Below are positions 6,145 through 16,540 of a stretch of DNA of 16,540 nt, in pieces. Below the pieces are notes generated by a model. It was not told the DNA's origin, ran no database searches, and was given only the letters and a program-made list of their open reading frames with translations. This DNA comes from JAYEMH01 sp034717985 [NCBI: Candidatus Ratteibacteria bacterium] (GTDB taxonomy: Bacteria > CAZDME01 > JAYEMH01): contig JAYEMH010000037.1 of NCBI GenBank assembly GCA_034717985.1, positions 14,249 to 30,788 on the forward strand. Reading direction: 5' to 3'. Every line of letters starts with the position of its first letter. Position 1 is the stretch's first letter. The translations under genes were made by a program, and so were the position numbers.

Positions 6145-6267
6145 CTAATTGGCGCCGGTGAGGTCACGCGCGTTTTTGATGTAGGATTTGTGTTCTTCCG
6201 TCACTTCTTGTAATGCTGTGATTTCAAAGATGTCTTTCTTTTTATTATACAGCTTCAAGTGCCTTCG
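6145..6267 (-). pseudogene. 3' remnant of a large exported-protein gene
   Basis: The reverse strand encodes about 40 residues that match the C-terminus of the giant protein at 7956: RHLKLYNKKKDIFEIT here against RYLKLYNMEKDIFEIT there, and it ends ARDLTGAN then TAG (6145-6147) against IRNLSGAN then TAA. Upstream of this tail the sequence switches at once (about 6264) to DNA matching the untranslated leader of the giant gene, which begins at about 13665. Nothing of the signal peptide or the body of the protein is left, and no credible start codon serves the tail. I read it as a paralogous gene collapsed by an internal deletion that joined leader to tail. Its last 31 bases also match the tail at 14784-14814 with one difference, so the lost gene could have resembled either neighbour. 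Confidence 0.8.
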
Positions 6268-6494
6268 TAAAAACAAAAATTTTACCACCGAAACACTGAA
6301 TTTAAGAAGCACAGAATTTTAAAAAAATTTACGCCATAACTCCATAGGTCTATATTTCAAATTCATTTTTCAGTATCTCCGAGCTTCCGTGCTTCAGTGG
6401 TTAATTTTCTTTTTTTGTTTTTCTATTAGAGGGACGGGCGTGCCCGTCCCCTACAATATTTTTTGATTCTTTTAAAATCCTGTAAATCCTGTCA
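6264..6494 (-). repeat. Leader-region repeat, copy 1 (matches 13665-13829)
   Basis: From TTCGTAAAAAC onward this stretch aligns with 13665-13829 almost base for base, including CACCGAAACACTGAA, a run of A's, TTCAGT-TCTCCG and GTGCTTCA, and the tandem words AATCCTGTAAATCCTGT near the right end. The only large difference is a 65-bp insertion (6397-6461). Within it, ACCACCGAAACACTGAA and the inverse of TTCAGTGTCTCCG are opposed, so a dispersed repeat pair makes up part of this leader. Confidence 0.8.
6397..6461. repeat. 65-bp insertion with GC-rich palindrome
   Basis: The bases between GCTTCA and TTTGATTCT are absent from the matching leader at 13792-13806. The insertion contains a perfect palindrome with 9-bp arms GGGACGGGC / GCCCGTCCC (6431-6450), much more GC-rich than its surroundings. 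It looks like a small dispersed palindromic element. No target duplication is evident to me. Confidence 0.55.
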
Positions 6495-6495
6495 G

Positions 6496-6619
6496 AAATA
6501 AAAAGGCCGAATCACCTATATTCTAGGCAACTCAGCCTACGCCAAAAAGCGCTGACGCACTGTAGTTTTGCGGGCCCTGTACCCTACGTGGTATGGGGCG
6601 TGCCTTTTTCTAGAACCGC
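6496..6619 (-). promoter_or_regulatory. Structured leader RNA with terminator, copy 1 (GEMM/c-di-GMP-I-like riboswitch candidate)
   Basis: On the minus strand, a stem-loop with GCCCC...TACC / GGTA...AGGGC arms follows GGCA (6604-6601). Then come GCAAAACTAC, a hairpin closed by CTAC/GTAG, and GGCTGAG-TTGCC. The TTGCC can pair with the first GGCA to close the aptamer. Alternatively GGCTGAGTTGCC (6537-6526) pairs over 12 bp with 6516-6505 and is followed by TTTTTATTT, making an intrinsic terminator. Two competing structures sharing one strand is classical riboswitch design. The blocks GGCA / GCAAA / TTGCC match the junction of c-di-GMP-I aptamers, but the GAAA loop of P2 is not seen. This copy drives only the gene remnant at 6145 and perhaps read-through into nusA. 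Confidence 0.55.
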
Positions 6620-6646
6620 TTATCCTACTTTTACACTCTTATACGA

Positions 6647-6675
6647 AGTATAGCATATCAATCTTGAAAAAGCAA
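6647..6675 (-). promoter_or_regulatory. Promoter of leader RNA copy 1
   Basis: On the minus strand TTGCTT (6670-6675) precedes TATACT (6647-6652) by 17 bp, with TGC before the -10. It is conserved at the second leader (13977-14006), including the T-run before the -35, and lies back to back with the plus-strand promoter at 6699. Confidence 0.7.
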
Positions 6676-6768: not shown

Positions 6769-7404
6769 ATGTTGATCCCACCAAGACGAAAAAAAATACT
6801 GGAAGTTTTTTTCAGAGATCCTTTTCAAGAAATACATCTTAGGGAAATTGTTAGGCTATCTGGAGTTTCGTTGACCAATGTGGATAATTCGTTACGTTTA
6901 TTCGTAAAAGAGGATATGTTTAAAAGGCGAGAAGTCTCTAATATGGTATTCTTTAAACCAAATCTGGAAAATGAGGCGCTTTTAAAAATATTTGAATACT
7001 TAGAACTGGAAAAGAAAAAGGAGTTTTATGACAAAAATAAGAAAATTGCTAGATTATTGCAAAAATATGCAGAAGATATAGTAAATTTATCTAATAAGAA
7101 AATTCAATTAGTAGTACTTTTTGGTTCAGTTGCACGGGGGGCCTGGACCAAAAATAGCGATATAGATATACTGGTTGTTGTCTCTGATAAAGATGCTGAT
7201 GTAACAACCGTACTAAATAAAGCCAAAATAATTGCAACTCCGCTCTTAGAAATAAGTCCCATAAGCACTACTACTGAAAAATTTATTGAGGGTTTTAGGA
7301 AAAAAACTGAATTTTATGATGAGCTGTGGAGAGATCGAATAGTATTATACAATGAATTTTTGTTTTGGCAGTTAGTTAAGGAAAGGGGCAAATTATATGC
7401 CTGA
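6769..7404 (+). CDS. Winged-helix nucleotidyltransferase, MNT-type antitoxin candidate
   Basis: This 211-residue protein begins with a helix-turn-helix/winged-helix-like domain (about residues 6-65, RKKILEVFF, then EIHLREIVRLSGVS, then a wing with MVFFKPN). A minimal nucleotidyltransferase domain follows, with the signature LFGSVARGAWTKNSDIDI (residues 117-134): GS at 119-120 and the metal-binding acids D131 and D133. Such proteins pair with HEPN proteins; in studied MNT/HEPN systems the nucleotidyltransferase modifies and silences the HEPN RNase. The gene overlaps the downstream HEPN gene by eight bases. An AGGAG ribosome-binding site precedes the ATG by about eight bases. The HTH fusion suggests it also represses its own promoter. 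The pair is on the opposite strand to its neighbours and more AT-rich than the nusA operon, in keeping with an acquired module. Confidence 0.8.
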   Translation: MLIPPRRKKILEVFFRDPFQEIHLREIVRLSGVSLTNVDNSLRLFVKEDMFKRREVSNMVFFKPNLENEALLKIFEYLELEKKKEFYDKNKKIARLLQKYAEDIVNLSNKKIQLVVLFGSVARGAWTKNSDIDILVVVSDKDADVTTVLNKAKIIATPLLEISPISTTTEKFIEGFRKKTEFYDELWRDRIVLYNEFLFWQLVKERGKLYA

Positions 7405-7894
7405 AAATATCTATAGACTTCTGCATGAATGTTTTCATCCTAAAAAGGGCAAATCTAATCTCCGTAAGATTCCTGTGGATATCGAGCGAATGCATCAGCA
7501 TATGGATAAAGCACACAATAACCTAAGAGCTATGAAAATAATGTGTGATAATCACTTATTTGATTGGACGATTATTTGCGGATATTACTCAATGTATCAT
7601 TCGGTATTAGCTTCACTTTTCAAAATAGGTATCCGCGCTACTGCTCATTACTGCGCCATTGCTGCTTTTAAAGAATTCTATATTGAGCGCGGAAAAGTAG
7701 CGCCGGAGTATATTAACTACATTAAAAAGGCAAAGCAACTCGAGCAAAAATACGCAGAAACTTTAGAAAAGGCACAAGAAGAAAGGGTTGTTGAGCAATA
7801 TGGAATTGAGATTCTTAGTAACGGTGATGCCAAATGGATTATTGAAGATGCAAAAGATTTTGTTCTTAAGATAGAAGAGGTATTAGCCGAGTGA
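7397..7894 (+). CDS. HEPN-domain protein (UPF0332-like), toxin candidate
   Basis: This is a 165-residue, mainly helical protein. The central stretch reads DWTIICGYYSMYHSVLASL (residues 56-74), then KIGIRATAHYCAI (76-88), matching the HEPN pattern of a YYxMYHA-like helix followed by a glycine and a conserved histidine. R80 and H84 are three residues apart, closer than the Rx4-6H spacing of known HEPN RNases, so nuclease activity is uncertain. The start lies inside the 3' end of the nucleotidyltransferase gene (eight-base overlap), so the two are coupled. The stop is 61 bp from the stop of the convergent giant gene, with no obvious terminator between. The likely role is toxin or effector of the pair. 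Confidence 0.75.
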   Translation: MPENIYRLLHECFHPKKGKSNLRKIPVDIERMHQHMDKAHNNLRAMKIMCDNHLFDWTIICGYYSMYHSVLASLFKIGIRATAHYCAIAAFKEFYIERGKVAPEYINYIKKAKQLEQKYAETLEKAQEERVVEQYGIEILSNGDAKWIIEDAKDFVLKIEEVLAE

Positions 7895-7955: not shown

Positions 7956-10900
7956 TTAGTTAGCTCCACTGAGGTTACGAATATTTTCAATGTAATCTTT
8001 ATGTTCTTTAGTTACTTCTTGTAACTCTGTAATTTCAAAAATGTCCTTTTCCATATTATACAACTTCAAATACCTTGCCTGCTCTTTGCTCAGGATTCCA
8101 TCCTTAACTAAAAAGGCCTCTAAAGCGGTATCAAAAGCCGTCCCTACCCGAACAATGCTATTATTATCCCCCAGTTCACAAACCACACCAATTATATGTT
8201 TTAAACTTTCCGGTCTTTTTGCCTCTTTATATATCTTCACCCAATCTCCGGGACCAAACGCCACTATGCTTTTTACATTCAGCTTTTGAATTAGTTTATT
8301 AATTACTTCAACGGGTTTCTTTTCTTCTTCGGCCGAAACTATCTCATCAAAGAAATCCTTGCTCAGGTCCATCCCAGTTGCTTTTTCTATATTTTTATAG
8401 AAATCGCTTACTTCTTTTTCTTCCCCGATTTTACCATAGGATAAAACCAATCTTAAACCTCTTTCTTCATCCCGGCCCAACTGCTCAATGATTTTGTAAA
8501 GCCCTAAGGCAAAACCCGGTTCCCGCAGAAGCCGGTGGTTGATAATCAGCCCCCGCCGATTATCCGGGTCTTTAAGCGAAGCCGCTATTTCCTTTCTCAA
8601 CTCGTCCAATAATTTTATATCCGGACAAACTTTGGTAAATTCAGAGAATTTTTGTTCTATCTTTTCGGTTCGCTTTTTATCCTCAGATTCACTTTGTTGC
8701 CCGGCTTCAGCATATTTCCCTTGTCTCCTTACCGCTTTCATCTCCCCCATCTTTCCCCAGAAAACCTGAACCTCCTCACTCACCTCATCTTTTGGTTTCT
8801 CAAGTAAAGATGAGAAAATGTTAGTAACCTCTCCTAAATTCTTTATGCCCTCTTTCATATCGTCTTTTATTTGGTTCGTATTATAATTGATTTGCCCAAT
8901 TCCCCAGTTTTTGCTTTCAAGTTTGGCTATAATTATCCATCTAGAAATTTGCGCTGCTGCAATTGATATATTCAGTTCAGCGGCAATTTCTCGCAAAGTT
9001 CTACCATTATTTGTCATAATCATTATCCGGTAATCGATTTCCCCAAGCTGAGAATTCCTTCGCGCCTTTTTCATCCCCTTCATATTCTCCCAGAATTTCT
9101 CGATTTCCCTTCTTACTTCTTCCACGGGTTTACTGCCAAAAGAATAAAAAGTGTTAATAACCTTGTCTAAATTCTTTATCCCTTCTTCCATATCGGCGCT
9201 TAATTGTTTAACCTTGTCATTAACCGCCATAAGCCCCCAATTTTTCCCTTCAAGTTCTGATATAATCATCCAATTGGAATTGACTACTACTAACGGTAAT
9301 ATCTGCAGTTCTTCTGCAATTTCTAAGACAGTTTTTCCTCCATTTATGCAAAGCATTATTTGATAGTCAAATTCGGTGAGGCGCAAACTTTTTTGTGTAT
9401 AACTCCGTTTTCCTCTAGGAAATGGTGATGATTTCAGGCCAAGACGATTCCCTATCTCTTCCCGTATTCCCTCATCTTTTGCTTTTTTAACCGGCTTCAA
9501 GATATTTGCTTCAGCTATCTGCCATATCCCTGATTGGCTCCCGCCTAAAGCATCAACATATTCAGAAACATTTCTTGTTCCGGTAGAAGTTAAAGGCCCT
9601 CCCTTAGATAAAAATGCCTCTATCCCTCCCACATCTAATTTCGTAGTTGCCTCAATTCCCATTCTTTCTGCCTTATTTAAAACATGCTCTAAAATATTTC
9701 TCTTGAAAATCTTTCCGGTTGAAGGATAAATTTCTTCTAAGAAAATAACCGATTGACCGTCTTCTTTTGTCATTACCCGGATAATCGCCCGGTCAATCGG
9801 AATGCCGTTTCTTTTAACTAAAACCACCCTTTTATTAGAATCAAAATAGGCCGGATGACAACGGAAAAACTCTATATCCGGATAATTATATCCCTGGCAG
9901 GTAGCTGCCGGCTTCTCGCCAATCATCGCCAGAATAAAAGGATCGTCGGTATCCTCTATGGTTATTTGTCCTTTAAGTGCCAGCTTTGTCGGCTGAAGTA
10001 TTTTATCCCGTAAATCCTTTATGTCTGCCGCCGCCGCTCTCTCTCCCTTCTTATTTAAACTGTTAATCAAACTGTTTATAAATTTTACTAAACCCTTTTT
10101 CCCTTCTTGACTTTCTATCTTTCCGGTCTCTATTTCTTCACTATTTAAATTAAACAGAATTAATAAACTTCTGGCAATTTGCAGGTTTTCTAACCGAACC
10201 TCTGCTTCTTCTATATTCTTTATATCTTCAAAATGTTTAATCTTTTTAATGCTCTCTAAAGAAGGTTGTCTATGTTTTATATTCTTTCTTGCCTCAGTAG
10301 TTATCCGGCTTAAATCTTCAATATTGCCACTCGGATTATCAAACATTAAGGATAATTGCTCCCTGACAAATCCCTGAATATGCTGATGCTCTACCATCTT
10401 CCTTAGTTTCTCCTGAATCCGCCCGACTTTCCCTATTGCCTCTGGGCTGATATCCCGTTCTTCTACCGAACTAACCTCATTTTCCATCCAGATATCTTTC
10501 TGCTTTTTCTTAAGCATCGCCAATTGGTCGGTATCATAACGATATTCTTTATATTTCCCCTCTAAAACCTTTTCTACTACGTTCCTGACAATCTCTAATT
10601 CCTCATCCAGATTATGCTCTTTAAACCGCTTATAGAAGGTGGTAAAGGCAATAACTGCCTCCCATGGGTTCTCATATTTAAGCCAATTGTTTACTGCTTT
10701 TCCATCTACCGCTATATCTATTTCTAATATTTTTACTAAATCCGTTAACAAACCTTTGCCTATTTCTTCTATAATCTCCTTCGGATTAGTCTGACCGGCT
10801 TGAGCGGCAAAATCTTTTAATAAATCTCGCCTCTTTAATAAAAGACACCCTTGAGTTACCCCTAAAATATTCCCAAACCCGGACATAGAAAGCTTCTTTT

Positions 10901-13664
10901 TAGAAATTCTTTCTAAAATTCTGGAAACCGAATTTCTATTTTCCGAGTTAGAGAAAACTTCTCTTAAATCATCAAACAAATAGGCCATTCTTTGCGGTCC
11001 GGATACCTTTTCTCCTTTAATTCTAAGGTTATATTCAAAGAATTTAAGCCCGGCTTCCGGATTTATGCTTAATAATCCGGCAAATTGCTTGGCATATTTC
11101 TGCCAAAATAGTTCTTCATCATATTGCAAAGACTTACGCAGTGATGAATTTATCTCCTCTAAAACCCTTTCTGCTTTCTTAAACAACGGATAAAACTCCT
11201 GACAAACAACCTTTACTGCTTCCCTTTCATCAGCAATGTTTCTTTTATCCGAAGCTAAAACCGCGGCCAAACTCCAGATAATAAATCCTTCATCTCTTTG
11301 GGTCACCTCTCTCTCAAGCTCCTCTTTAATTAACTTTTCATATAAATGGCATCTTTCTAAATCGGCTGTTTTCATTATTCCAGCCAGTCTTCTGGCCGCT
11401 TCTTGGCGGACATTCGCATTAGTATCCTTTAACACTTCCAAGAGAGACTCAAGTATTTTAAAAGCTAAAGTAGAATCAATTCTTCCTATTTTGCCCAAAG
11501 CGGCTGCTGCCTCTTGGCGGACTTCCTCATCATTATCATTTAACATTTCTAAGAGAGGCTCAAGTATTTTAAAAACTAAAGCAGAATCAGTTGCCCCTAT
11601 CCCGCCTAAAGCTCTCACCGCCTCTCGGCGGACATTCCAGTCATTATCCTTTAACATTTCTAAAAGCGGACCAAGCACTTCTAAAGCTAAAGCAGAATCA
11701 ATTTTTCCTATTTTGCCCAAAGCGGCCGCCGCCTCTTGACGGAGATACCAGTCCTTATCCTTTAACATTTCTAAGAGCGGGCCAAGCACTTCTAAAGCTA
11801 AATCAGAATCAGTCTGCCCTATCTCGCCCAAAGCGGCCGCCGCCCCTTGGCGGACATACAAGACTTTATCCTTTAACATTTCTAAGAGTGGCTCAAGTAT
11901 TTTAAAAGCTGAAGTCAAATCAGTTTCTCCTATTCTGCCCAAAGCGACTGCCGCCTCTTGACGGACATTCGCATCATTATCCTTTAACATTTCTAAGAGA
12001 GGCTCAAGTATTTTGAAAGCTAAAGCAGAATCAATTTTTCCTATTTTGCCCAAAGCGGCTACCGTCTTTTGGCGGACATTCGAGACGTTATCCTTTAACA
12101 TTTCTAAGAGAGGTTCAAGCATTTTAAAGGCTGAAGCAGAATCAATTTTTCCTATTTTGCCCAAAGCGGCCGCCGCCTCTTGGCGGACATACGAGGCGTT
12201 ATCCTTTAACATTGCAACAAGAGGATTAAGCACTTCTAAAGCTGAAGCAGAATCATTTTTCCCTATTTCTCCCAAAGCGGCCGCCGCCCCTTGGCGGACA
12301 TACCCGTCCTTATCCTTTAATATTTCCAAGAGTGGATTAAGCACTTCTAAAGCTAAAGCAGAATCAGTCTGCCCTATCCCGCCCAAAGCTCGCACCACCT
12401 CGTGGCGGACATCACCATTACTATCTTTTAACATTTCTAAGAGAGGCTCAAGTATTTTAAAAGCTAAAGCAAAATCAGTTTTTCCTATTTTGCCCAAAGC
12501 GGCTGCCGCTTCTTGACGGAGATTCGCATCATTATCCTTTAACATTTCTAAGAGCGGCTCAAGTATTTTAAAAGCTAAAGCAAAATCAGTTTTTCCTATT
12601 CCGCCTAAAGCTCTTACCGTCCCTTGGCGGACATTACCATTACTATCTTTTAACATTTCTAAGAGCGGCTCAAGTATTTTAAAAGCTAAAGCAGAATCAG
12701 TTTTTCCTATTTTGCCCAAAGCGGCTACCGCTTCTTGGCGGACATACCCGTCCTTATCCTTTAACATTTCCAAGAGTGGATTAAGCACTTCTAAAGCTAA
12801 AGCAGAATCAGCTTTCCCTGTTTCGCCTAAAGCTTCCGCCGCCTTTTGGCGGATATACCAGTCATTATTCTTCAACATCCCAAAAAAACAGTTAACTAAA
12901 TTTATACTGATAATCTCCGGTTTGGTGTTTATTATTTCAGTTAATAAGAAGAACTGCTCACGACTTATATTCAAACTGTCCACATCAGAAACCAATTCCT
13001 CTAAAATAGCCGACAAGGATAAATCCTTGGCATCTGCTTTTCTATTTATCGCCGCTCCTCGTTCTGCCGCACTTTCAGTATCATCATCCAATTTTTCATC
13101 TTGTTTTCCATCAAACCCTATTCCCAAACCACCTTCATCACCTCTGACTAATTGCTCAAGCGCTATATTGAGGCTTCCATCTTCAAGATAACTGCGCGCT
13201 TCTTTAATTGCCGCATTACGGCTCCAGCCTTCTTTTATTAAAGTTAAATAAAATTCCAATGTCTCGTTTATCTTCTCTTCTTTCTCATCTTCTAACTCGA
13301 ATTTTCTGATAATCTTTGGCAAGCGGGCGCGGATGGCAAATTCTTTAATGAGTAGGTCTGTTTCTTTACCATCTTCTCCTCTTGCCGGTACCCGCAGAAA
13401 CGAATCCGTCTTCGTCCTACTTCGCCAAGGCTTCGAAGGACAAGCCCAGGCAAAATCTATAAATACTGTACTAATTAAAAAAGCCCCTATAACAACTATA
13501 GAAGTTATCCTCAGGAGCAGCTTCTTCCGTATATCGTATATCGTATTTCGCCCTCTGGAATTTCGAAGAAATTCCGAGGACTGAGTCCCGGAAAATCTTC
13601 GATTTTCTCGGGGCATCTCGTTATCAATTTTTCTCATAAATGACTCATCTATTTCTATCCGCAT
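7956..13664 (-). CDS. Giant exported HEAT-repeat protein
   Basis: An uninterrupted frame of about 1,900 residues. Residue numbers here count from an in-frame TTG at 13679. I prefer the ATG at 13664; ATG 13637, with a GAG seven bases before it, is also possible. A signal peptide spans about 51-79 (RKKLLLR, a hydrophobic core, AWA before C80), then TDSFLRVP. Residues 264-781 are 14 HEAT repeats of exactly 37 residues (PLLEMLKDxDxxVRQEAAAALGKIG). A long helical region follows. A segment from about 1240 (TDDPFILAMIGEKP ... FLEEIYPSTG) recalls, from memory, a domain in large chlamydial and Legionella proteins. Two related repeats of about 115 residues begin at about 1430 and 1546 and have HTH-like character. 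The C-terminal domain (1663-1907) ends NIRNLSGAN. A promoter and riboswitch-like leader lie upstream. Function unknown; an exported scaffold or cell-surface role is inference. Confidence 0.85.
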   Translation of the reverse strand: MRIEIDESFMRKIDNEMPRENRRFSGTQSSEFLRNSRGRNTIYDIRKKLLLRITSIVVIGAFLISTVFIDFAWACPSKPWRSRTKTDSFLRVPARGEDGKETDLLIKEFAIRARLPKIIRKFELEDEKEEKINETLEFYLTLIKEGWSRNAAIKEARSYLEDGSLNIALEQLVRGDEGGLGIGFDGKQDEKLDDDTESAAERGAAINRKADAKDLSLSAILEELVSDVDSLNISREQFFLLTEIINTKPEIISINLVNCFFGMLKNNDWYIRQKAAEALGETGKADSALALEVLNPLLEMLKDKDGYVRQEAVAALGKIGKTDSALAFKILEPLLEMLKDSNGNVRQGTVRALGGIGKTDFALAFKILEPLLEMLKDNDANLRQEAAAALGKIGKTDFALAFKILEPLLEMLKDSNGDVRHEVVRALGGIGQTDSALALEVLNPLLEILKDKDGYVRQGAAAALGEIGKNDSASALEVLNPLVAMLKDNASYVRQEAAAALGKIGKIDSASAFKMLEPLLEMLKDNVSNVRQKTVAALGKIGKIDSALAFKILEPLLEMLKDNDANVRQEAAVALGRIGETDLTSAFKILEPLLEMLKDKVLYVRQGAAAALGEIGQTDSDLALEVLGPLLEMLKDKDWYLRQEAAAALGKIGKIDSALALEVLGPLLEMLKDNDWNVRREAVRALGGIGATDSALVFKILEPLLEMLNDNDEEVRQEAAAALGKIGRIDSTLAFKILESLLEVLKDTNANVRQEAARRLAGIMKTADLERCHLYEKLIKEELEREVTQRDEGFIIWSLAAVLASDKRNIADEREAVKVVCQEFYPLFKKAERVLEEINSSLRKSLQYDEELFWQKYAKQFAGLLSINPEAGLKFFEYNLRIKGEKVSGPQRMAYLFDDLREVFSNSENRNSVSRILERISKKKLSMSGFGNILGVTQGCLLLKRRDLLKDFAAQAGQTNPKEIIEEIGKGLLTDLVKILEIDIAVDGKAVNNWLKYENPWEAVIAFTTFYKRFKEHNLDEELEIVRNVVEKVLEGKYKEYRYDTDQLAMLKKKQKDIWMENEVSSVEERDISPEAIGKVGRIQEKLRKMVEHQHIQGFVREQLSLMFDNPSGNIEDLSRITTEARKNIKHRQPSLESIKKIKHFEDIKNIEEAEVRLENLQIARSLLILFNLNSEEIETGKIESQEGKKGLVKFINSLINSLNKKGERAAAADIKDLRDKILQPTKLALKGQITIEDTDDPFILAMIGEKPAATCQGYNYPDIEFFRCHPAYFDSNKRVVLVKRNGIPIDRAIIRVMTKEDGQSVIFLEEIYPSTGKIFKRNILEHVLNKAERMGIEATTKLDVGGIEAFLSKGGPLTSTGTRNVSEYVDALGGSQSGIWQIAEANILKPVKKAKDEGIREEIGNRLGLKSSPFPRGKRSYTQKSLRLTEFDYQIMLCINGGKTVLEIAEELQILPLVVVNSNWMIISELEGKNWGLMAVNDKVKQLSADMEEGIKNLDKVINTFYSFGSKPVEEVRREIEKFWENMKGMKKARRNSQLGEIDYRIMIMTNNGRTLREIAAELNISIAAAQISRWIIIAKLESKNWGIGQINYNTNQIKDDMKEGIKNLGEVTNIFSSLLEKPKDEVSEEVQVFWGKMGEMKAVRRQGKYAEAGQQSESEDKKRTEKIEQKFSEFTKVCPDIKLLDELRKEIAASLKDPDNRRGLIINHRLLREPGFALGLYKIIEQLGRDEERGLRLVLSYGKIGEEKEVSDFYKNIEKATGMDLSKDFFDEIVSAEEEKKPVEVINKLIQKLNVKSIVAFGPGDWVKIYKEAKRPESLKHIIGVVCELGDNNSIVRVGTAFDTALEAFLVKDGILSKEQARYLKLYNMEKDIFEITELQEVTKEHKDYIENIRNLSGAN
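11337..12890 (-). repeat. 14 tandem 111-bp units encoding HEAT repeats
   Basis: Fourteen consecutive 37-codon units run through the giant gene without a single indel. Every unit has the VRQ/VRH/VRR...ALG.IG core, and neighbouring units share long identical words such as CATTTCTAAGAG and CCCAAAGCGG (plus-strand reading). Units alternate between two ending types, ALEVLN/G and AFKILE. Units 3 and 5 share an SNG(N/D)VR...RALGGIG variant, pointing to duplication in multi-unit blocks. Confidence 0.9.
13402..13551 (-). repeat. 150-bp signal-peptide cassette, copy 1 (identical to 16391-16540)
   Basis: All 150 bases are identical to 16391-16540, and the match may continue past the right edge. It encodes, in the same frame in both genes, the stretch from RNTIYDIRKK through the signal-peptide core and AWACPSKPW to RTKTDS. 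Downstream of it the two genes diverge completely. Confidence 0.95.
13557..13612. repeat. Two palindromes inside the N-terminal coding region
   Basis: GGAATTTC (13557-13564) and GAAATTCC (13568-13575) form a perfect 8-bp hairpin. CCCGGAAAATC (13587-13597) pairs with GATTTTC (13601-13607) and CGGG (13609-13612) with one bulged base. They encode the positively charged segment PRENRRFSGTQSSEFLRNSR ahead of the signal peptide if the upstream starts are used. This looks like a palindromic element inserted within or just before the reading frame. Confidence 0.6.
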
Positions 13665-13829
13665 TTCGTAAAAACACAAATTTTACCACCGAAACACTGA
13701 ATTTAAGAAGCACAGAATTTTAAAAAAATTTACGTCATAACTCCATGGGTCTATATTTCAAATTCATTTTTCAGTGTCTCCGGACTTCCGTGCTTCATTT
13801 GATTCTTTTTAAATCCTGTAAATCCTGTC
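13665..13829 (-). repeat. Leader-region repeat, copy 2 (matches 6264-6494)
   Basis: This is the untranslated region between the leader terminator and the giant gene. It matches 6264-6494 apart from scattered substitutions and the missing 65-bp palindrome insertion. It includes the tandem AATCCTGTAAATCCTGT words and the CACCGAAACACTGAA motif. No ribosome-binding site stands out before the ATG at 13664. Confidence 0.8.
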
Positions 13830-13950
13830 GAAAATAGAAAGACTGAGCCACCTATTTCTAGGCAACTCAGCCATCCCGAAACTTCAGAACCTGTAGTTTT
13901 GCTTGCCCCGTACCCTCCGCGGTATGGGGCGTGCCTTTTTCTAGAACCGC
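13830..13950 (-). promoter_or_regulatory. Structured leader RNA with terminator, copy 2 (GEMM/c-di-GMP-I-like riboswitch candidate)
   Basis: On the minus strand GGCA (13935-13932) opens the fold. The P2-like stem GCCCC..TACC / GGTA..GGGGC has a six-base loop, and GCAAAACTAC and GGCTGAG-TTGCC follow. TTGCC can close on GGCA, or GGCTGAGTTGCC (13872-13861) can pair over 12 positions with 13852-13841, followed by a T-rich run. Against copy 1, stem positions change from U-G to U-A and from G-U to G-C, so pairing is preserved. The RNA sits between a promoter and the giant gene 165-180 bases downstream, the right place for a cis-regulator. If it senses c-di-GMP, ligand binding would favour read-through. 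Assignment to GEMM-I is by the conserved junction words only. Confidence 0.6.
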
Positions 13951-13976
13951 TTATTTACTTTTAAGCTCTTATAGTA

Positions 13977-14006
13977 AGTATAGCATATAAACCCGGCCAA
14001 AAGCAA
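13977..14006 (-). promoter_or_regulatory. Promoter of leader RNA copy 2 / giant gene
   Basis: On the minus strand TTGCTT (14001-14006) precedes TATACT (13977-13982) by 18 bp, with TATATGC before the -10, as in copy 1 (where the spacer is 17 bp). Confidence 0.65.
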
Positions 14007-14021
14007 AAAAATCTGTTTATT

Positions 14022-14288
14022 TCAAAAAACATCTTCGTGCTTGCCCAGTTCAAGAAGATAGGCTGTGTCTTTTTCCCTTCTATAAACACATCTGTAATTC
14101 ATAGTAACACTAAATTCCCAATAATCTTGAACGCCTTCTATTTTTTTATTTCTTAACGAAGGGTGATTTTTATTTTCCAGAAGCATATCCATACACCAGT
14201 AAAATTTCTCCCTTATTTGTTTAGAAACCCCCTTCTTTCTTTTAAGCTTTTTCTTCAAAGGCTCAGCGATAACTATCCGCTTAATCAT
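14022..14288 (-). CDS. RelE/ParE-superfamily toxin
   Basis: An 88-residue basic protein with the size and pattern of RelE/ParE/Txe toxins: an N-terminal strand (KRIVIAEP), two lysine/arginine-rich helices (LKKKLKRKKGVSKQIREKF), then the C-terminal sheet with DYWEFSVTMNYRCVYRREKD and LLELGKHEDVF. The YRCVY segment and the terminal H-E-D-V-F correspond to the family's YRIxY and HxDxY-type ends. Such toxins usually cleave ribosome-bound mRNA; I cannot tell RelE-like from ParE-like activity by eye. The ATG overlaps the stop of the upstream antitoxin by four bases. The pair is close to the leader-RNA promoter of the giant gene but is a separate unit. Confidence 0.85.
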   Translation of the reverse strand: MIKRIVIAEPLKKKLKRKKGVSKQIREKFYWCMDMLLENKNHPSLRNKKIEGVQDYWEFSVTMNYRCVYRREKDTAYLLELGKHEDVF

Positions 14289-14563
14289 CCTTCTACATCT
14301 TTCTTTAGCTCTTTACCAGAATGATAAACCGAATATCTGCCTTTTTTAATAGCGCCTTCAGCTTTCTTAATTGCCTTCTGCCATTTTTTAGTAAAAAAAT
14401 AGGCTTGGTCCTTATTAACAATAGATACCGGAGTGATGACTATTTTATTATCCGTTACATCAAAACGAATCAAATCGTTATCTTTAATATGCAGAACCTT
14501 TCTTATTTTGGAAGGAATAGTAAGCTGCCCATTCCTTACAACCTTACTAACAGCTCCTAACAT
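14285..14563 (-). CDS. AbrB/SpoVT-type antitoxin
   Basis: The start is the ATG at 14561-14563, which has a perfect AAGGAGGT ribosome-binding site eight bases upstream; an in-frame GTG further up lies inside that site and can be dismissed. The 92-residue protein begins with a swapped-hairpin AbrB-type DNA-binding domain: GAVSKVVRNGQLTIPSKIRK, then VLHIKDNDLIRFDV and KIVITP. Its tail (about 50-92) is basic and helical, the part expected to wrap the toxin. It is translationally coupled to the RelE/ParE-like toxin and probably represses the shared promoter. AbrB antitoxins with RelE-fold toxins have precedent in PrlF-YhaV. Confidence 0.9.
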   Translation of the reverse strand: MLGAVSKVVRNGQLTIPSKIRKVLHIKDNDLIRFDVTDNKIVITPVSIVNKDQAYFFTKKWQKAIKKAEGAIKKGRYSVYHSGKELKKDVEG

Positions 14564-14592
14564 TACAAACACCTCCTTTTAAAGCTATATAA

Positions 14593-14781: not shown

Positions 14782-14841
14782 TTAATTGGCGCCGGTGAGG
14801 TCACGCTCGTTTTTAAGGTAGAAATAGGTTCCTTGTGAGAA
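14782..14841 (-). other. In-frame C-terminal tail behind a TAG stop
   Basis: Directly after the TAG at 14842-14844 the same frame stays open for 19 codons, ending YLKNERDLTGAN and TAA (14782-14784). The last residues match the ends of the giant protein (NIRNLSGAN) and of the relic at 6145 (NARDLTGAN), and 31 bases are nearly identical to the relic. The original protein therefore almost certainly ended at 14782, and the TAG is either a nonsense mutation or a readthrough site. Confidence 0.8.
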
Positions 14842-16540
14842 CTACGAAGCGCTGTAAAGTTCAAGCGAATTATTATATTCCTCTATTTCTTCTTCAATAT
14901 TTTGCGTAATTGGGAGTGGAGTAAGGAATATCACGCCTTTTCCTCCGGATATTATAAGCTCAAGCCCACTGGCAAGTGAATAAAGATTATTTTCTCCCGC
15001 TGAAGCTTTAAACAATAATATCGGCGGCATGCCTGACTGGGCTGATAGTTCCTTAAGTGAATCTAAGTTTTTAGCTTTCCCTTTTACAATACTAAAAATA
15101 TCCTCCGGCTTAACCCCGTTTCTTTTAGCAAATTCTATTAGAGCCTTGATTTCTTCCACTTCAGTGATAGTCCGTTTGAGGCTGAGTTCTTTTTTGAGGG
15201 CTTCTTTGGTTAGCGTTATTGTCTCTATTTTCGAATCAATATCTTTAACCAGCCTATCTAAAACTCTAGCTTTCCCCGGGTCTTGGGCAAATATAAAGAC
15301 CTTTCCTAATTTATCGTTATTATAAAGAGTCCTTAAAACTTCCTCGGTATCTATAATCCCGCCATTGTCTAATATCTCTTCGGCATAAAGAATACAATTT
15401 TGTTTAGCTGCCAAATCTTTAAGCATTTCATCTGTTACTGCTGGATATTTAGCTATTCTTTTTAATTCATTCCTTGAATCTTGTAAGTCAACATATTTGA
15501 GCCTTCTTTGAGTTAAAAATTGGACTTTTCCAGCTGAATCCTTTCTTCCAATTGCCTGCCAAGGTTGAACCCTGTTTCCTTTTCCACCTGTATAGAAAAC
15601 AAAATGAACACTTGCAGTTTCTTTTTCTATATATCTTTTTATAAAGAATCCTCTTATGCAATGGTCAAAATCTCTAAATACTCTGGCCTCCTCTTCCGCT
15701 ACTCTATATACTACATAATCTTTTGCGGCTTGTATGCCCTTTTGTTCTATCTGCTCAGGAGTCAGTCCTACATCAAAAATGTTCCTCTGAGCATGCTTTA
15801 CTAATGTAGGAAACTCTAGTGTATTTTCTACATCCCTATAGACTTTTTTCTTTATCCTCAACAATGTTTCTCTGAAATTTTTTCCATACTTTTCATAACA
15901 AGAAGAAACAGTAACTATGCTAAATATATTATCATATCCTTTTCTTGTTATTATTTCTCTTAATCCTTGAACATAGATTTGTGTCCTTTCTCGTGGAATG
16001 TTGTTAATCTCTTGTATTATTCCATCGGTAACCAATATATTAATTTTTAAGCCGGGTGAATATATCTTTCTAACTTCACAGGATAACTCATAAAGATTAT
16101 CGAGAGTTGCTTCTTCGGCTAAGTCTACTTTTAAAATTGGTAAATGAGGATTTTTTGAACCACCCCAGAATTGAAGTATCTCTATGGGAAAGTTGCTGGT
16201 CACCATTGGAAGTAACTTCTTAAGAAGTTCTTCATAAGCATCCTCTGAATATTTAGGTCCAGACCTGTATTTTCTAGAAGACATCACATCATATATCCGT
16301 TTACATAAAGTTAACCTTTCTGTTGCAATAGATGTGAATAGCTTTTTGTTGAGCCTATCATCTTTTCTTACTGGACATGGACGTAAGCAAGAATCCGTCT
16401 TCGTCCTACTTCGCCAAGGCTTCGAAGGACAAGCCCAGGCAAAATCTATAAATACTGTACTAATTAAAAAAGCCCCTATAACAACTATAGAAGTTATCCT
16501 CAGGAGCAGCTTCTTCCGTATATCGTATATCGTATTTCGC
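14842..16540 (-). CDS. Exported protein with isonitrile synthase (DIT1/PvcA)-like domain, 5' end beyond window
   Basis: The frame is open from the right edge to TAG at 14842, so the true start lies outside; the GTG at 16287 is only the first internal start-like codon. It opens with the same signal peptide as the giant protein (16391-16540), then TDSCLRPCP. The central domain shows FWGGSKNPH, DLAEEATLDNL, a Y-SPGLKINILVTDG segment (about 16170-16020), and later IRGFFIKRY, VHFVFYTGG and PWQAIG (about 15550). This order matches my memory of the isonitrile synthase family, which makes isocyanides from Tyr or Trp in the cytosol. Export would be surprising for that enzyme. The second half (about 15500-14842) is alpha/beta-like (KVFIFAQDPGKARVLDRLV ... 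ILLFKASAGENNLYSLASG) and may be related to the giant protein's C-terminal domain. The in-frame TAG cuts off the conserved GAN tail. Confidence 0.7.
   Translation of the reverse strand, partial: RNTIYDIRKKLLLRITSIVVIGAFLISTVFIDFAWACPSKPWRSRTKTDSCLRPCPVRKDDRLNKKLFTSIATERLTLCKRIYDVMSSRKYRSGPKYSEDAYEELLKKLLPMVTSNFPIEILQFWGGSKNPHLPILKVDLAEEATLDNLYELSCEVRKIYSPGLKINILVTDGIIQEINNIPRERTQIYVQGLREIITRKGYDNIFSIVTVSSCYEKYGKNFRETLLRIKKKVYRDVENTLEFPTLVKHAQRNIFDVGLTPEQIEQKGIQAAKDYVVYRVAEEEARVFRDFDHCIRGFFIKRYIEKETASVHFVFYTGGKGNRVQPWQAIGRKDSAGKVQFLTQRRLKYVDLQDSRNELKRIAKYPAVTDEMLKDLAAKQNCILYAEEILDNGGIIDTEEVLRTLYNNDKLGKVFIFAQDPGKARVLDRLVKDIDSKIETITLTKEALKKELSLKRTITEVEEIKALIEFAKRNGVKPEDIFSIVKGKAKNLDSLKELSAQSGMPPILLFKASAGENNLYSLASGLELIISGGKGVIFLTPLPITQNIEEEIEEYNNSLELYSAS
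16391..16540 (-). repeat. 150-bp signal-peptide cassette, copy 2 (identical to 13402-13551)
   Basis: This is the exact counterpart of 13402-13551, in the same reading frame, and is cut by the window edge. It ends within the codons for TDS; beyond that point the two genes share no obvious DNA similarity until their C-terminal tails. Confidence 0.95.

What the first reader, a model, noticed from the sequence alone, without database searches (positions are those of the whole stretch)
13830..13950. Riboswitch-like leader with a competing terminator in front of the giant exported-protein gene
The RNA has an aptamer-like fold closed by GGCA/TTGCC, and the same TTGCC strand is also the 5' arm of a 12-bp terminator stem followed by T's. 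Copy 1 (6496-6619) keeps all 12 stem pairs despite several base changes. GGCA / GCAAA / TTGCC are the junction words of c-di-GMP-I aptamers, yet the P2 loop (GCGGAG or ACGTAG) is not the GAAA tetraloop. It is either a divergent c-di-GMP-I (or cGAMP-type) switch or a new class. Control of a giant exported protein would fit known c-di-GMP regulons.
Basis: partly seen in the sequence, partly recalled or inferred. Interest (0 to 1): 0.75.

Follow-up and report, generated by a model that had tools for sequence, protein, structure and literature searches.

The report
Divergent c-di-GMP riboswitch before giant protein
Two related RNA leaders in an uncultured Omnitrophota-like bacterium look like strongly drifted c-di-GMP riboswitches whose sensing fold and stop-signal fold exclude each other, so the signal molecule would switch on a large exported protein; the kind of switch is known, this drifted shape is unusual.

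Summary
Copy 2 (13857-13951, minus strand) and copy 1 (6522-6620) can form P1/P2/P3 c-di-GMP-I-like aptamers. The P3 3' strand, the ligand-pairing GCC and the P1 strand are the 5' arm of a 14- or 15-pair terminator. Rfam matches both below gathering (RF03167 38.4 bits, E 4.8e-6; RF01051 31.5 bits, E 0.0073). A model of these two copies alone found 14 places in 270 Omnitrophota genomes; nine are c-di-GMP-I matches. G20, A47 and C92 are kept, favouring c-di-GMP over cGAMP and against the 'GGC' variant. P2 tetraloop and P3 receptor are gone; copy 2 alone has lost C44 of the reportedly universal C44-G83 pair. The layout is that of the Geobacter pilM ON-switch. The downstream 1907-aa HEAT-repeat protein has an export-like N-terminus; copy 1 heads only a gene remnant. 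Two other Omnitrophota genomes repeat aptamer, overlapping terminator and a long export-like ORF (at least 2,300 aa), but most aptamers sampled in the phylum have a separate terminator (36 of 55). RF01051 matches 253 of 285 Omnitrophota genomes. Verdict: new variant of a known kind; ligand binding untested.

The parts
13977..13985 (-). copy 2: extended -10-like element TGCTATACT, conserved in copy 1
   Evidence: sequence; NOT listed by the promoter scan; inference only
13857..13951 (-). copy 2: c-di-GMP-I-like aptamer (P1 13945-13942/13860-13857, P2 13934-13901, P3 13898-13864)
   Evidence: (RF03167, 38.4 bits, E 4.8e-6)
13901..13934 (-). copy 2 P2: long hairpin, loop GCGGAG, no GNRA; resembles a palindrome found elsewhere in a few Omnitrophota
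13903..13903 (-). copy 2 position 44: A in place of C
13841..13872 (-). copy 2: intrinsic terminator, 14 pairs; 5' arm = P3 3' strand + GCC + P1 3' strand; T-rich tract to 13831
13665..13809 (-). 145-nt segment between terminator and gene, 92% identical to the one after copy 1
   Evidence: D3
7956..13679 (-). presumed controlled gene: 1907-aa HEAT-repeat protein with export-like N-terminus (start codon uncertain)
6647..6655 (-). copy 1: extended -10-like element TGCTATACT
   Evidence: not listed by the scan
6522..6620 (-). copy 1: c-di-GMP-I-like aptamer (P1 6614-6611/6525-6522, P2 6603-6570, P3 6567-6529); keeps C44
   Evidence: (RF01051, 31.5 bits, E 0.0073)
6504..6538 (-). copy 1: intrinsic terminator, 15 pairs
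6146..6270 (-). remnant of a giant-gene C-terminus (LKLYNKKKDIFEITALQEVTEEHKSYIKNARDLTGAN) after copy 1
   Evidence: (D5)

Best explanation
Each leader is a transcriptional ON riboswitch of c-di-GMP-I descent. The emerging RNA can fold into the P1/P2/P3 aptamer. If c-di-GMP binds the junction (inferred from G20, A47 and C92), P1 and P3 are held and transcription runs on into the gene. If not, the later 3' arm captures the P3 3' strand, the ligand-pairing GCC and the P1 3' strand, and a strong terminator stops transcription (shown energetically; the switching itself is inferred). Copy 2 so controls a 1907-aa HEAT-repeat protein with an export-like N-terminus. Copy 1 is the switch of a mostly deleted paralogue. 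P2 has become a long hairpin without a tetraloop, perhaps from a dispersed palindrome, and P3 has no receptor.
For: Rfam E 4.8e-6 and 0.0073, both over the full model length. Model R1 from the two copies alone: 14 matches in 270 Omnitrophota genomes, 9 of them on c-di-GMP-I-GGC matches at E <= 0.01, 4 of these 9 over that family's cut-off. With 27 further matches from 24 other genomes: 24 of 29 pairs change on both sides, 91.7% of cells paired against 30.5-43.6% when slid (alignment fitted to the structure). Contact residues kept (residues named in PMC4744006, passages). Terminator fold beats the best fold that keeps the aptamer by 12.3 and 9.9 kcal/mol, and by 9.4-15.0 for other ends tried. 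Aptamer-overlapping terminators in 12 of 74 loci, the two window copies included, against a mean of 0.89 (maximum 4) with shuffled downstream sequence. Same arrangement with long export-like ORFs in G020 (about 2,320 aa or more) and G019 (2328 aa or more). GGDEF matches 5, 7 and 7 in G001-G003. pilM precedent (PMC9262584, passages).
Against: Both copies score below the gathering thresholds. Copy 2, the one before the intact gene, has A at position 44, breaking a pair described as universal among GEMM riboswitches. No tetraloop-receptor contact; a passage of PMC9262584 supports that contact in Cd1 by loss of binding in mutants. The predicted fold before the terminator depends on the unknown 5' end: for copy 2 the aptamer is the minimum or within 0.9 kcal/mol for the four starts tried; for copy 1 another fold is up to 5.6 kcal/mol better with starts 6640 and 6644 (without ligand or tertiary contacts). 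The promoter-like element was not listed by the scans. Most aptamers sampled in the phylum have a separate, not overlapping, terminator (36 of 55). No binding or expression data. The window's own GGDEF genes could not be checked.
Confidence: 0.7

Rival explanations
1. The aptamer of copy 2 no longer binds ligand (C44 lost, tertiary contact lost); the leader now acts as a plain attenuator, the terminator setting a low basal level.
For: A44 occurs only in copy 2 among the 28 of 29 rows of A3 with a letter there; sub-gathering scores; copy 1 already heads a remnant.
Against: The upper P3 stem keeps its pairing through five changed pairs and the shared 5' arm is unchanged, which would be odd in relics. 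G20, A47, C92 and G83 are kept.
Confidence: 0.16
2. It senses 3',3'-cGAMP or another cyclic dinucleotide, with the ON layout of the Geobacter pilM switch.
For: Layout equals pilM (PMC9262584 passages); A20, which as a G20A change lets GEMM-I RNA take cGAMP (PMC6274999 passages), occurs in 5 of 73 aptamers examined by my reading (6 by script), one of them before a giant gene.
Against: Position 20 is G in both window copies. PMC9262584 treats the position as a selectivity factor, not a hard filter, so this is not decisive.
Confidence: 0.1
3. Unrelated new riboswitch class or chance resemblance.
For: Unusual P2; sub-gathering scores.
Against: Full-length alignment to two clan models, reciprocal search, covariation with true members.
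Confidence: 0.03

Closest known systems
c-di-GMP-I (GEMM-I) riboswitch, RF01051
   Same: P1/P2/P3 junction, G20, A47, C92, C44-G83 in copy 1, terminator-coupled, gene for an export-like protein downstream of copy 2
   Different: no GNRA tetraloop, no P3 receptor, A24 replaced by C, G25-C42 extends P2, A44 in copy 2, score below gathering
c-di-GMP-I-GGC, RF03167
   Same: best-scoring model for copy 2; P3 without receptor
   Different: position 47 is A, where the printed consensus has G; 38.4 bits against a gathering score of 59
Geobacter metallireducens pilM 3',3'-cGAMP riboswitch (GEMM-Ib)
   Same: ON switch whose terminator takes up aptamer strands including the ligand-pairing C (PMC9262584, passages)
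   Different: window has G20; its P2 lacks a GNRA loop (pilM's own loop was not checked here)
G020 contig 95 and G019 contig 38 leaders (Omnitrophota, found here)
   Same: receptor-less aptamer, overlapping terminator, export-like ORF of at least 2,300 aa
   Different: both keep a GNRA loop and C44; G019 has A20; their long ORFs show no BLASTP similarity to the window's in the parts seen

Membership tests
c-di-GMP-I riboswitch (RF01051) | three-helix junction P1/P2/P3 supported by covariation | tested here: met
   (A3 is fitted to the structure; with the two copies alone 28 of 500 shuffles reach the observed value)
c-di-GMP-I riboswitch (RF01051) | ligand contacts G20, A47, C92 | tested here: met
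   alignments; residues named in PMC4744006 (passages); mapping of the numbers onto the window partly recalled
c-di-GMP-I riboswitch (RF01051) | interhelical C44-G83 pair, called universal in PMC4744006 (given there as C36-G90 of Vc1; Vc2 numbers recalled) | tested here: inconclusive
   copy 1 has C44 and G83; copy 2 has A44 and G83
c-di-GMP-I riboswitch (RF01051) | P2 GNRA tetraloop with P3 tetraloop receptor | tested here: not met
   loops GCGGAG and ACGTAG, no receptor. The receptor is also absent in L084, which scores 72.9 bits, so it is not strictly defining
c-di-GMP-I riboswitch (RF01051) | Rfam gathering score 35 | tested here: not met
   copy 1 31.5 bits; for copy 2 only the better RF03167 match was printed
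c-di-GMP-I riboswitch (RF01051) | binds c-di-GMP | not testable with these tools
   needs in-line probing or ITC
c-di-GMP-I-GGC (RF03167) | G at position 47 (my reading of the printed consensus GCGAA) | tested here: not met
   GCAAA in both copies
c-di-GMP-I-GGC (RF03167) | Rfam gathering score 59 | tested here: not met
   copy 2 38.4 bits
3',3'-cGAMP riboswitch (GEMM-Ib) | A at position 20 (as a natural signature recalled; G20A effect in PMC6274999 passages) | tested here: not met
   G in both copies
pilM-type ON expression platform | terminator 5' arm made of aptamer strands with the ligand-pairing C | tested here: met
   (layout only; switching not testable here)

The most novel reading that the evidence does not exclude
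A GEMM aptamer was rebuilt: P2 was replaced by a dispersed palindrome, the tetraloop-receptor clamp was dropped and, in copy 2, the interhelical pair too, yielding a cyclic-dinucleotide switch with a different tertiary solution or ligand preference that gates giant exported proteins in Omnitrophota.
Probability: 0.15. Interest if true: 0.7.

Novelty: new variant of a known kind. Interest (0 to 1): 0.5.

Why it matters
Omnitrophota are uncultured, and the roles of their giant ORFs are called poorly understood (PMC10066038, passages; that paper counts ORFs over 20 kb, larger than the window's 5.7 kb gene, and its main text does not contain 'riboswitch', 'c-di-GMP' or 'GGDEF'). A ligand-gated leader before such genes offers a regulator and a candidate signal that can be assayed in vitro without culture. 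RF01051 matches in 253 of 285 genomes suggest a broad c-di-GMP RNA regulon over exported proteins. In the paper library, 'Omnitrophota' with 'riboswitch' gave 0 papers, 'Omnitrophica' with 'riboswitch' 0, 'Omnitrophota' with 'cyclic di-GMP' 0, and 'Omnitroph' with 'c-di-GMP' 3 papers with one mention of each term (listing only). Papers outside that library were not searched.

Tried and rejected
Rejected: a new riboswitch class; membership of the GGC variant (position 47 is A). A DNA relative of the leader was sought in 285 genomes: 18 had matches, all pieces of about 19-51 nt; the three loci that I read (L127, L128, L130) hold no aptamer at the match by eye, the rest were not all read. The C-terminal 334 aa of the giant protein found no relative in genome contigs; 500 aa found one in 242 genomes.

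Overlapping terminators: the first scan gave 6 overlapping, 36 separate and 13 none among 55 loci and misses long-loop or bulged cases. The fold-based one called 23 of 73 and was noisy; it gave no significant link between missing receptor and overlapping terminator (Fisher p 0.079), so I do not claim that link. In one search (13 of 73), swapping downstream regions between loci gave a mean of 6.1 and a maximum of 12; I read this as the conserved aptamer 3' strand pairing with other loci's terminator arms, and then used shuffled downstream sequence with 9 instead of 8 pairs. Of the 12, L125 and L219 also hold a nearer copy of the strand, so overlap with the aptamer proper is doubtful there.

Script calls of positions 20, 44, 47 and 83 contain parsing errors, including the copy 2 row; I corrected the window by reading sequences and alignment A3. 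One search finds C44 in 62 of 73; the other 11 are insert variants, L085, L087 and L088 (an extra U there), weak L096, and parse errors. Rows dropped: L220 and L222 gave no match at E <= 0.01; of R1's 14 matches, L142 and L145-L149 were left out of the locus scripts; L197, L199 and L202 were dropped as duplicates and L203, L207-L209, L216-L218, L221 and L224, the same places as earlier loci, by hand. One search scored at most 14 candidates per genome and at most 17, so counts per genome are lower bounds; (RF03167: 217 of 255 genomes at E <= 1e-4, 147 over the cut-off) rings largely on the same aptamers. One search found none of my terms in PMC8835794.

Full report
What is there. On the minus strand two leaders, 13951-13831 and 6620-6497, share promoter region, aptamer, terminator and a 145-nt following segment. 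Copy 2 precedes the 1907-aa ORF 7956-13679, which holds HEAT repeats and an N-terminal hydrophobic stretch ending in FIDFAWA (no signal-peptide predictor was run). Copy 1 precedes only a remnant of a related C-terminus (6146-6270) and then nusA-infB-rbfA-truB-ribF-rpsO (gene names are my reading of the translations). The organism is inferred: the three best NusA matches, 56-58% identical, are titled Candidatus Omnitrophota. No whole genome is held for it.

Aptamer. Rfam gives full-length, significant but sub-gathering matches: RF03167 38.4 bits (cut-off 59), E 4.8e-6, for copy 2 and RF01051 31.5 bits (cut-off 35), E 0.0073, for copy 1. The copies differ in 5 of the 7 upper P3 pairs and keep them all, 4 by changes on both sides; one P2 pair is lost in copy 1 (28 of 500 shuffles reach the observed value, slid versions give 0 or 1). 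A covariance model made from these two sequences only found 14 matches in 270 genomes of the phylum of G001. Nine (L136-L144) lie on Rfam matches of c-di-GMP-I-GGC at E <= 0.01, four of them over its cut-off. Of the other five, L145, L147, L148 and L149 share the P2-like hairpin and L146 is unclear. Aligned to the model (29 matches from 27 of 29 chosen sources; the 27 rows besides the window come from 24 genomes), 24 of 29 pairs change on both sides and 91.7% of cells pair, against 30.5-43.6% when the partner is slid. The alignment was fitted to the structure, which favours it, and the sources were chosen by me as mostly receptor-less.

Which ligand. PMC4744006 (passages) names G20, A47 and C92 as contacts and an interhelical pair as universally conserved. 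The window has G20, A47 and the CC of the 3' junction in both copies. C44 is C in copy 1 and A in copy 2. In A3 the other 26 rows with a letter there all have C. A24 is C in both copies, and G25-C42 extends P2. GNRA loop and P3 receptor are absent. Receptor loss is common here: my script found a receptor in 34 of 73 aptamers (approximate), and L084, without one, reaches 72.9 bits. Loss of the GNRA loop is rarer: a GNRA loop was found in 63 of 73, 5 not parsed. G20 favours c-di-GMP; PMC9262584 (passage) calls that position a selectivity factor. GGDEF domains number 5, 7 and 7 in G001-G003, the genomes of the three best NusA matches.

Expression platform. The terminators have 14 and 15 pairs. 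Their 5' arm is the P3 3' strand, the junction GCC and the P1 3' strand, so the two folds exclude each other. For transcripts starting at 13953 or 6622 and ending just after P1, the minimum-energy fold has the aptamer form in both copies (29 of 29 and 27 of 28 pairs). With longer 5' ends this is less clear: for copy 2 the aptamer stays the minimum or within 0.9 kcal/mol of it; for copy 1 it falls up to 5.6 kcal/mol behind another fold. These energies contain neither ligand nor tertiary contacts, and the true 5' ends are unknown. Once the 3' arm is made, the terminator wins by 12.3 and 9.9 kcal/mol and by 9.4-15.0 with the other ends tried. This is the logic of the pilM ON-switch (PMC9262584, passages): terminator made from aptamer strands, ligand-pairing C sequestered. 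Hence ligand should turn transcription on. This step is inferred.

Other genomes. Strict aptamer-overlapping terminators occur in 12 of 74 aptamers examined, the two window copies included (L125 and L219 doubtful); shuffled downstream sequences give a mean of 0.89 and a maximum of 4 in 100 rounds. The sample was drawn from best-scoring matches and is not random, and most loci have a separate terminator instead (36 of 55), so the ON layout is the minority form. In G020, the only one of 242 genomes with a relative of the window giant's C-terminal 500 aa (37% identity, query residues 266-485; that relative ends a 2312-aa frame with an export-like start), a different contig carries a sub-gathering aptamer (38.2 bits), an overlapping terminator and an export-like ORF of about 2,320 aa or more, running off the stretch. 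In G019 a receptor-less aptamer with A20, an overlapping terminator and an ORF of 2328 aa or more whose N-terminal stretch ends in YDIAWA stand in a row. Neither long ORF showed BLASTP similarity to the window's. RF01051 matches 253 of 285 Omnitrophota genomes at E <= 0.01, 242 over the cut-off; of 14 control genomes 1 matched and none was over the cut-off. The first gene after the aptamer has a hydrophobic N-terminal segment in 35 of 51 cases against 75 of 236 other ORFs (threshold 2.0; 30 of 51 against 70 of 236 at 2.2; 24 of 51 against 58 of 236 at 2.5). That background counts every ORF of at least 150 aa in six frames, spurious ones too, so the contrast is rough.

P2 origin. The pattern CCCCRYACCNCGNNGGGTRCNGGG fits both P2 hairpins and occurs 6 times in 4 of 270 genomes; the reversed control pattern gave none in the genomes listed. 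By eye, none of the six contexts is an aptamer. P2 may descend from such a palindrome; this is inference, and such palindromes may also arise independently.

Conclusion. The leaders are c-di-GMP-I in descent and pilM-like in layout, drifted in P2 and, for copy 2, in one core tertiary pair. I file them as a new variant of a known kind, with ligand binding unproven and a real chance that copy 2 has lost it.

Noticed in passing
L091, L092, L094, L095 (G002), L093 (G001), L244 (G125): c-di-GMP-I aptamers with two extra hairpins inserted between positions 44 and 45 of P2, a recurrent expanded architecture in three Omnitrophota genomes (by eye).
   Followed up: partly
L083, L104, L105, L141, L144: A at position 20, as in G20A GEMM-I RNA that takes cGAMP, in 5 of 73 aptamers by my reading; the script counted a sixth, L219, which I read as a C21-G46 swap.
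   Followed up: partly
L214, L111, L123, L219, L235, L238: Swaps of core pairs 21-46 and 22-45: A21-U46 in L214, U22-A45 in L111, C21-G46 in L219, L235 and L238; L123 has U22 with G45 (by eye).
   Followed up: no
L085, L086, L087, L088, L109, L115, L119, L120, L137: A similar small protein (RVxxFLTRxExDFLDKLxKDxLFSTG-like) follows the aptamer in 9 of the 51 non-window loci with an ORF (by motif only).
   Followed up: no
window 14783-16540: A further paralogue: ORF 14842-16539 shares the giant's N-terminus (150 nt identical) and has a DIT1/PvcA match (36 bits); a tail motif like the giant's lies downstream of its stop codon, in the same frame.
   Followed up: partly
window 13665-13809 and 6264-6408: 145-nt repeat between terminator and gene; in copy 1 its ends form imperfect inverted repeats (ACCACTGAAGCAC / ACCACCGAAACAC), MITE-like.
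   Followed up: no
window 6430-6452: GGGGACGGGCACGCCCGTCCCT palindrome present after copy 1 and absent after copy 2.
   Followed up: no
window 6769-7894 (+) and 14022-14572 (-): Nucleotidyltransferase-HEPN pair and ParE/YafQ-like with MazE-like pair, both toxin-antitoxin-like.
   Followed up: no
G002 contig 49, 10195-10437: Weak GGDEF match (25.3 bits) inside an open frame of 10,590 aa.
   Followed up: no
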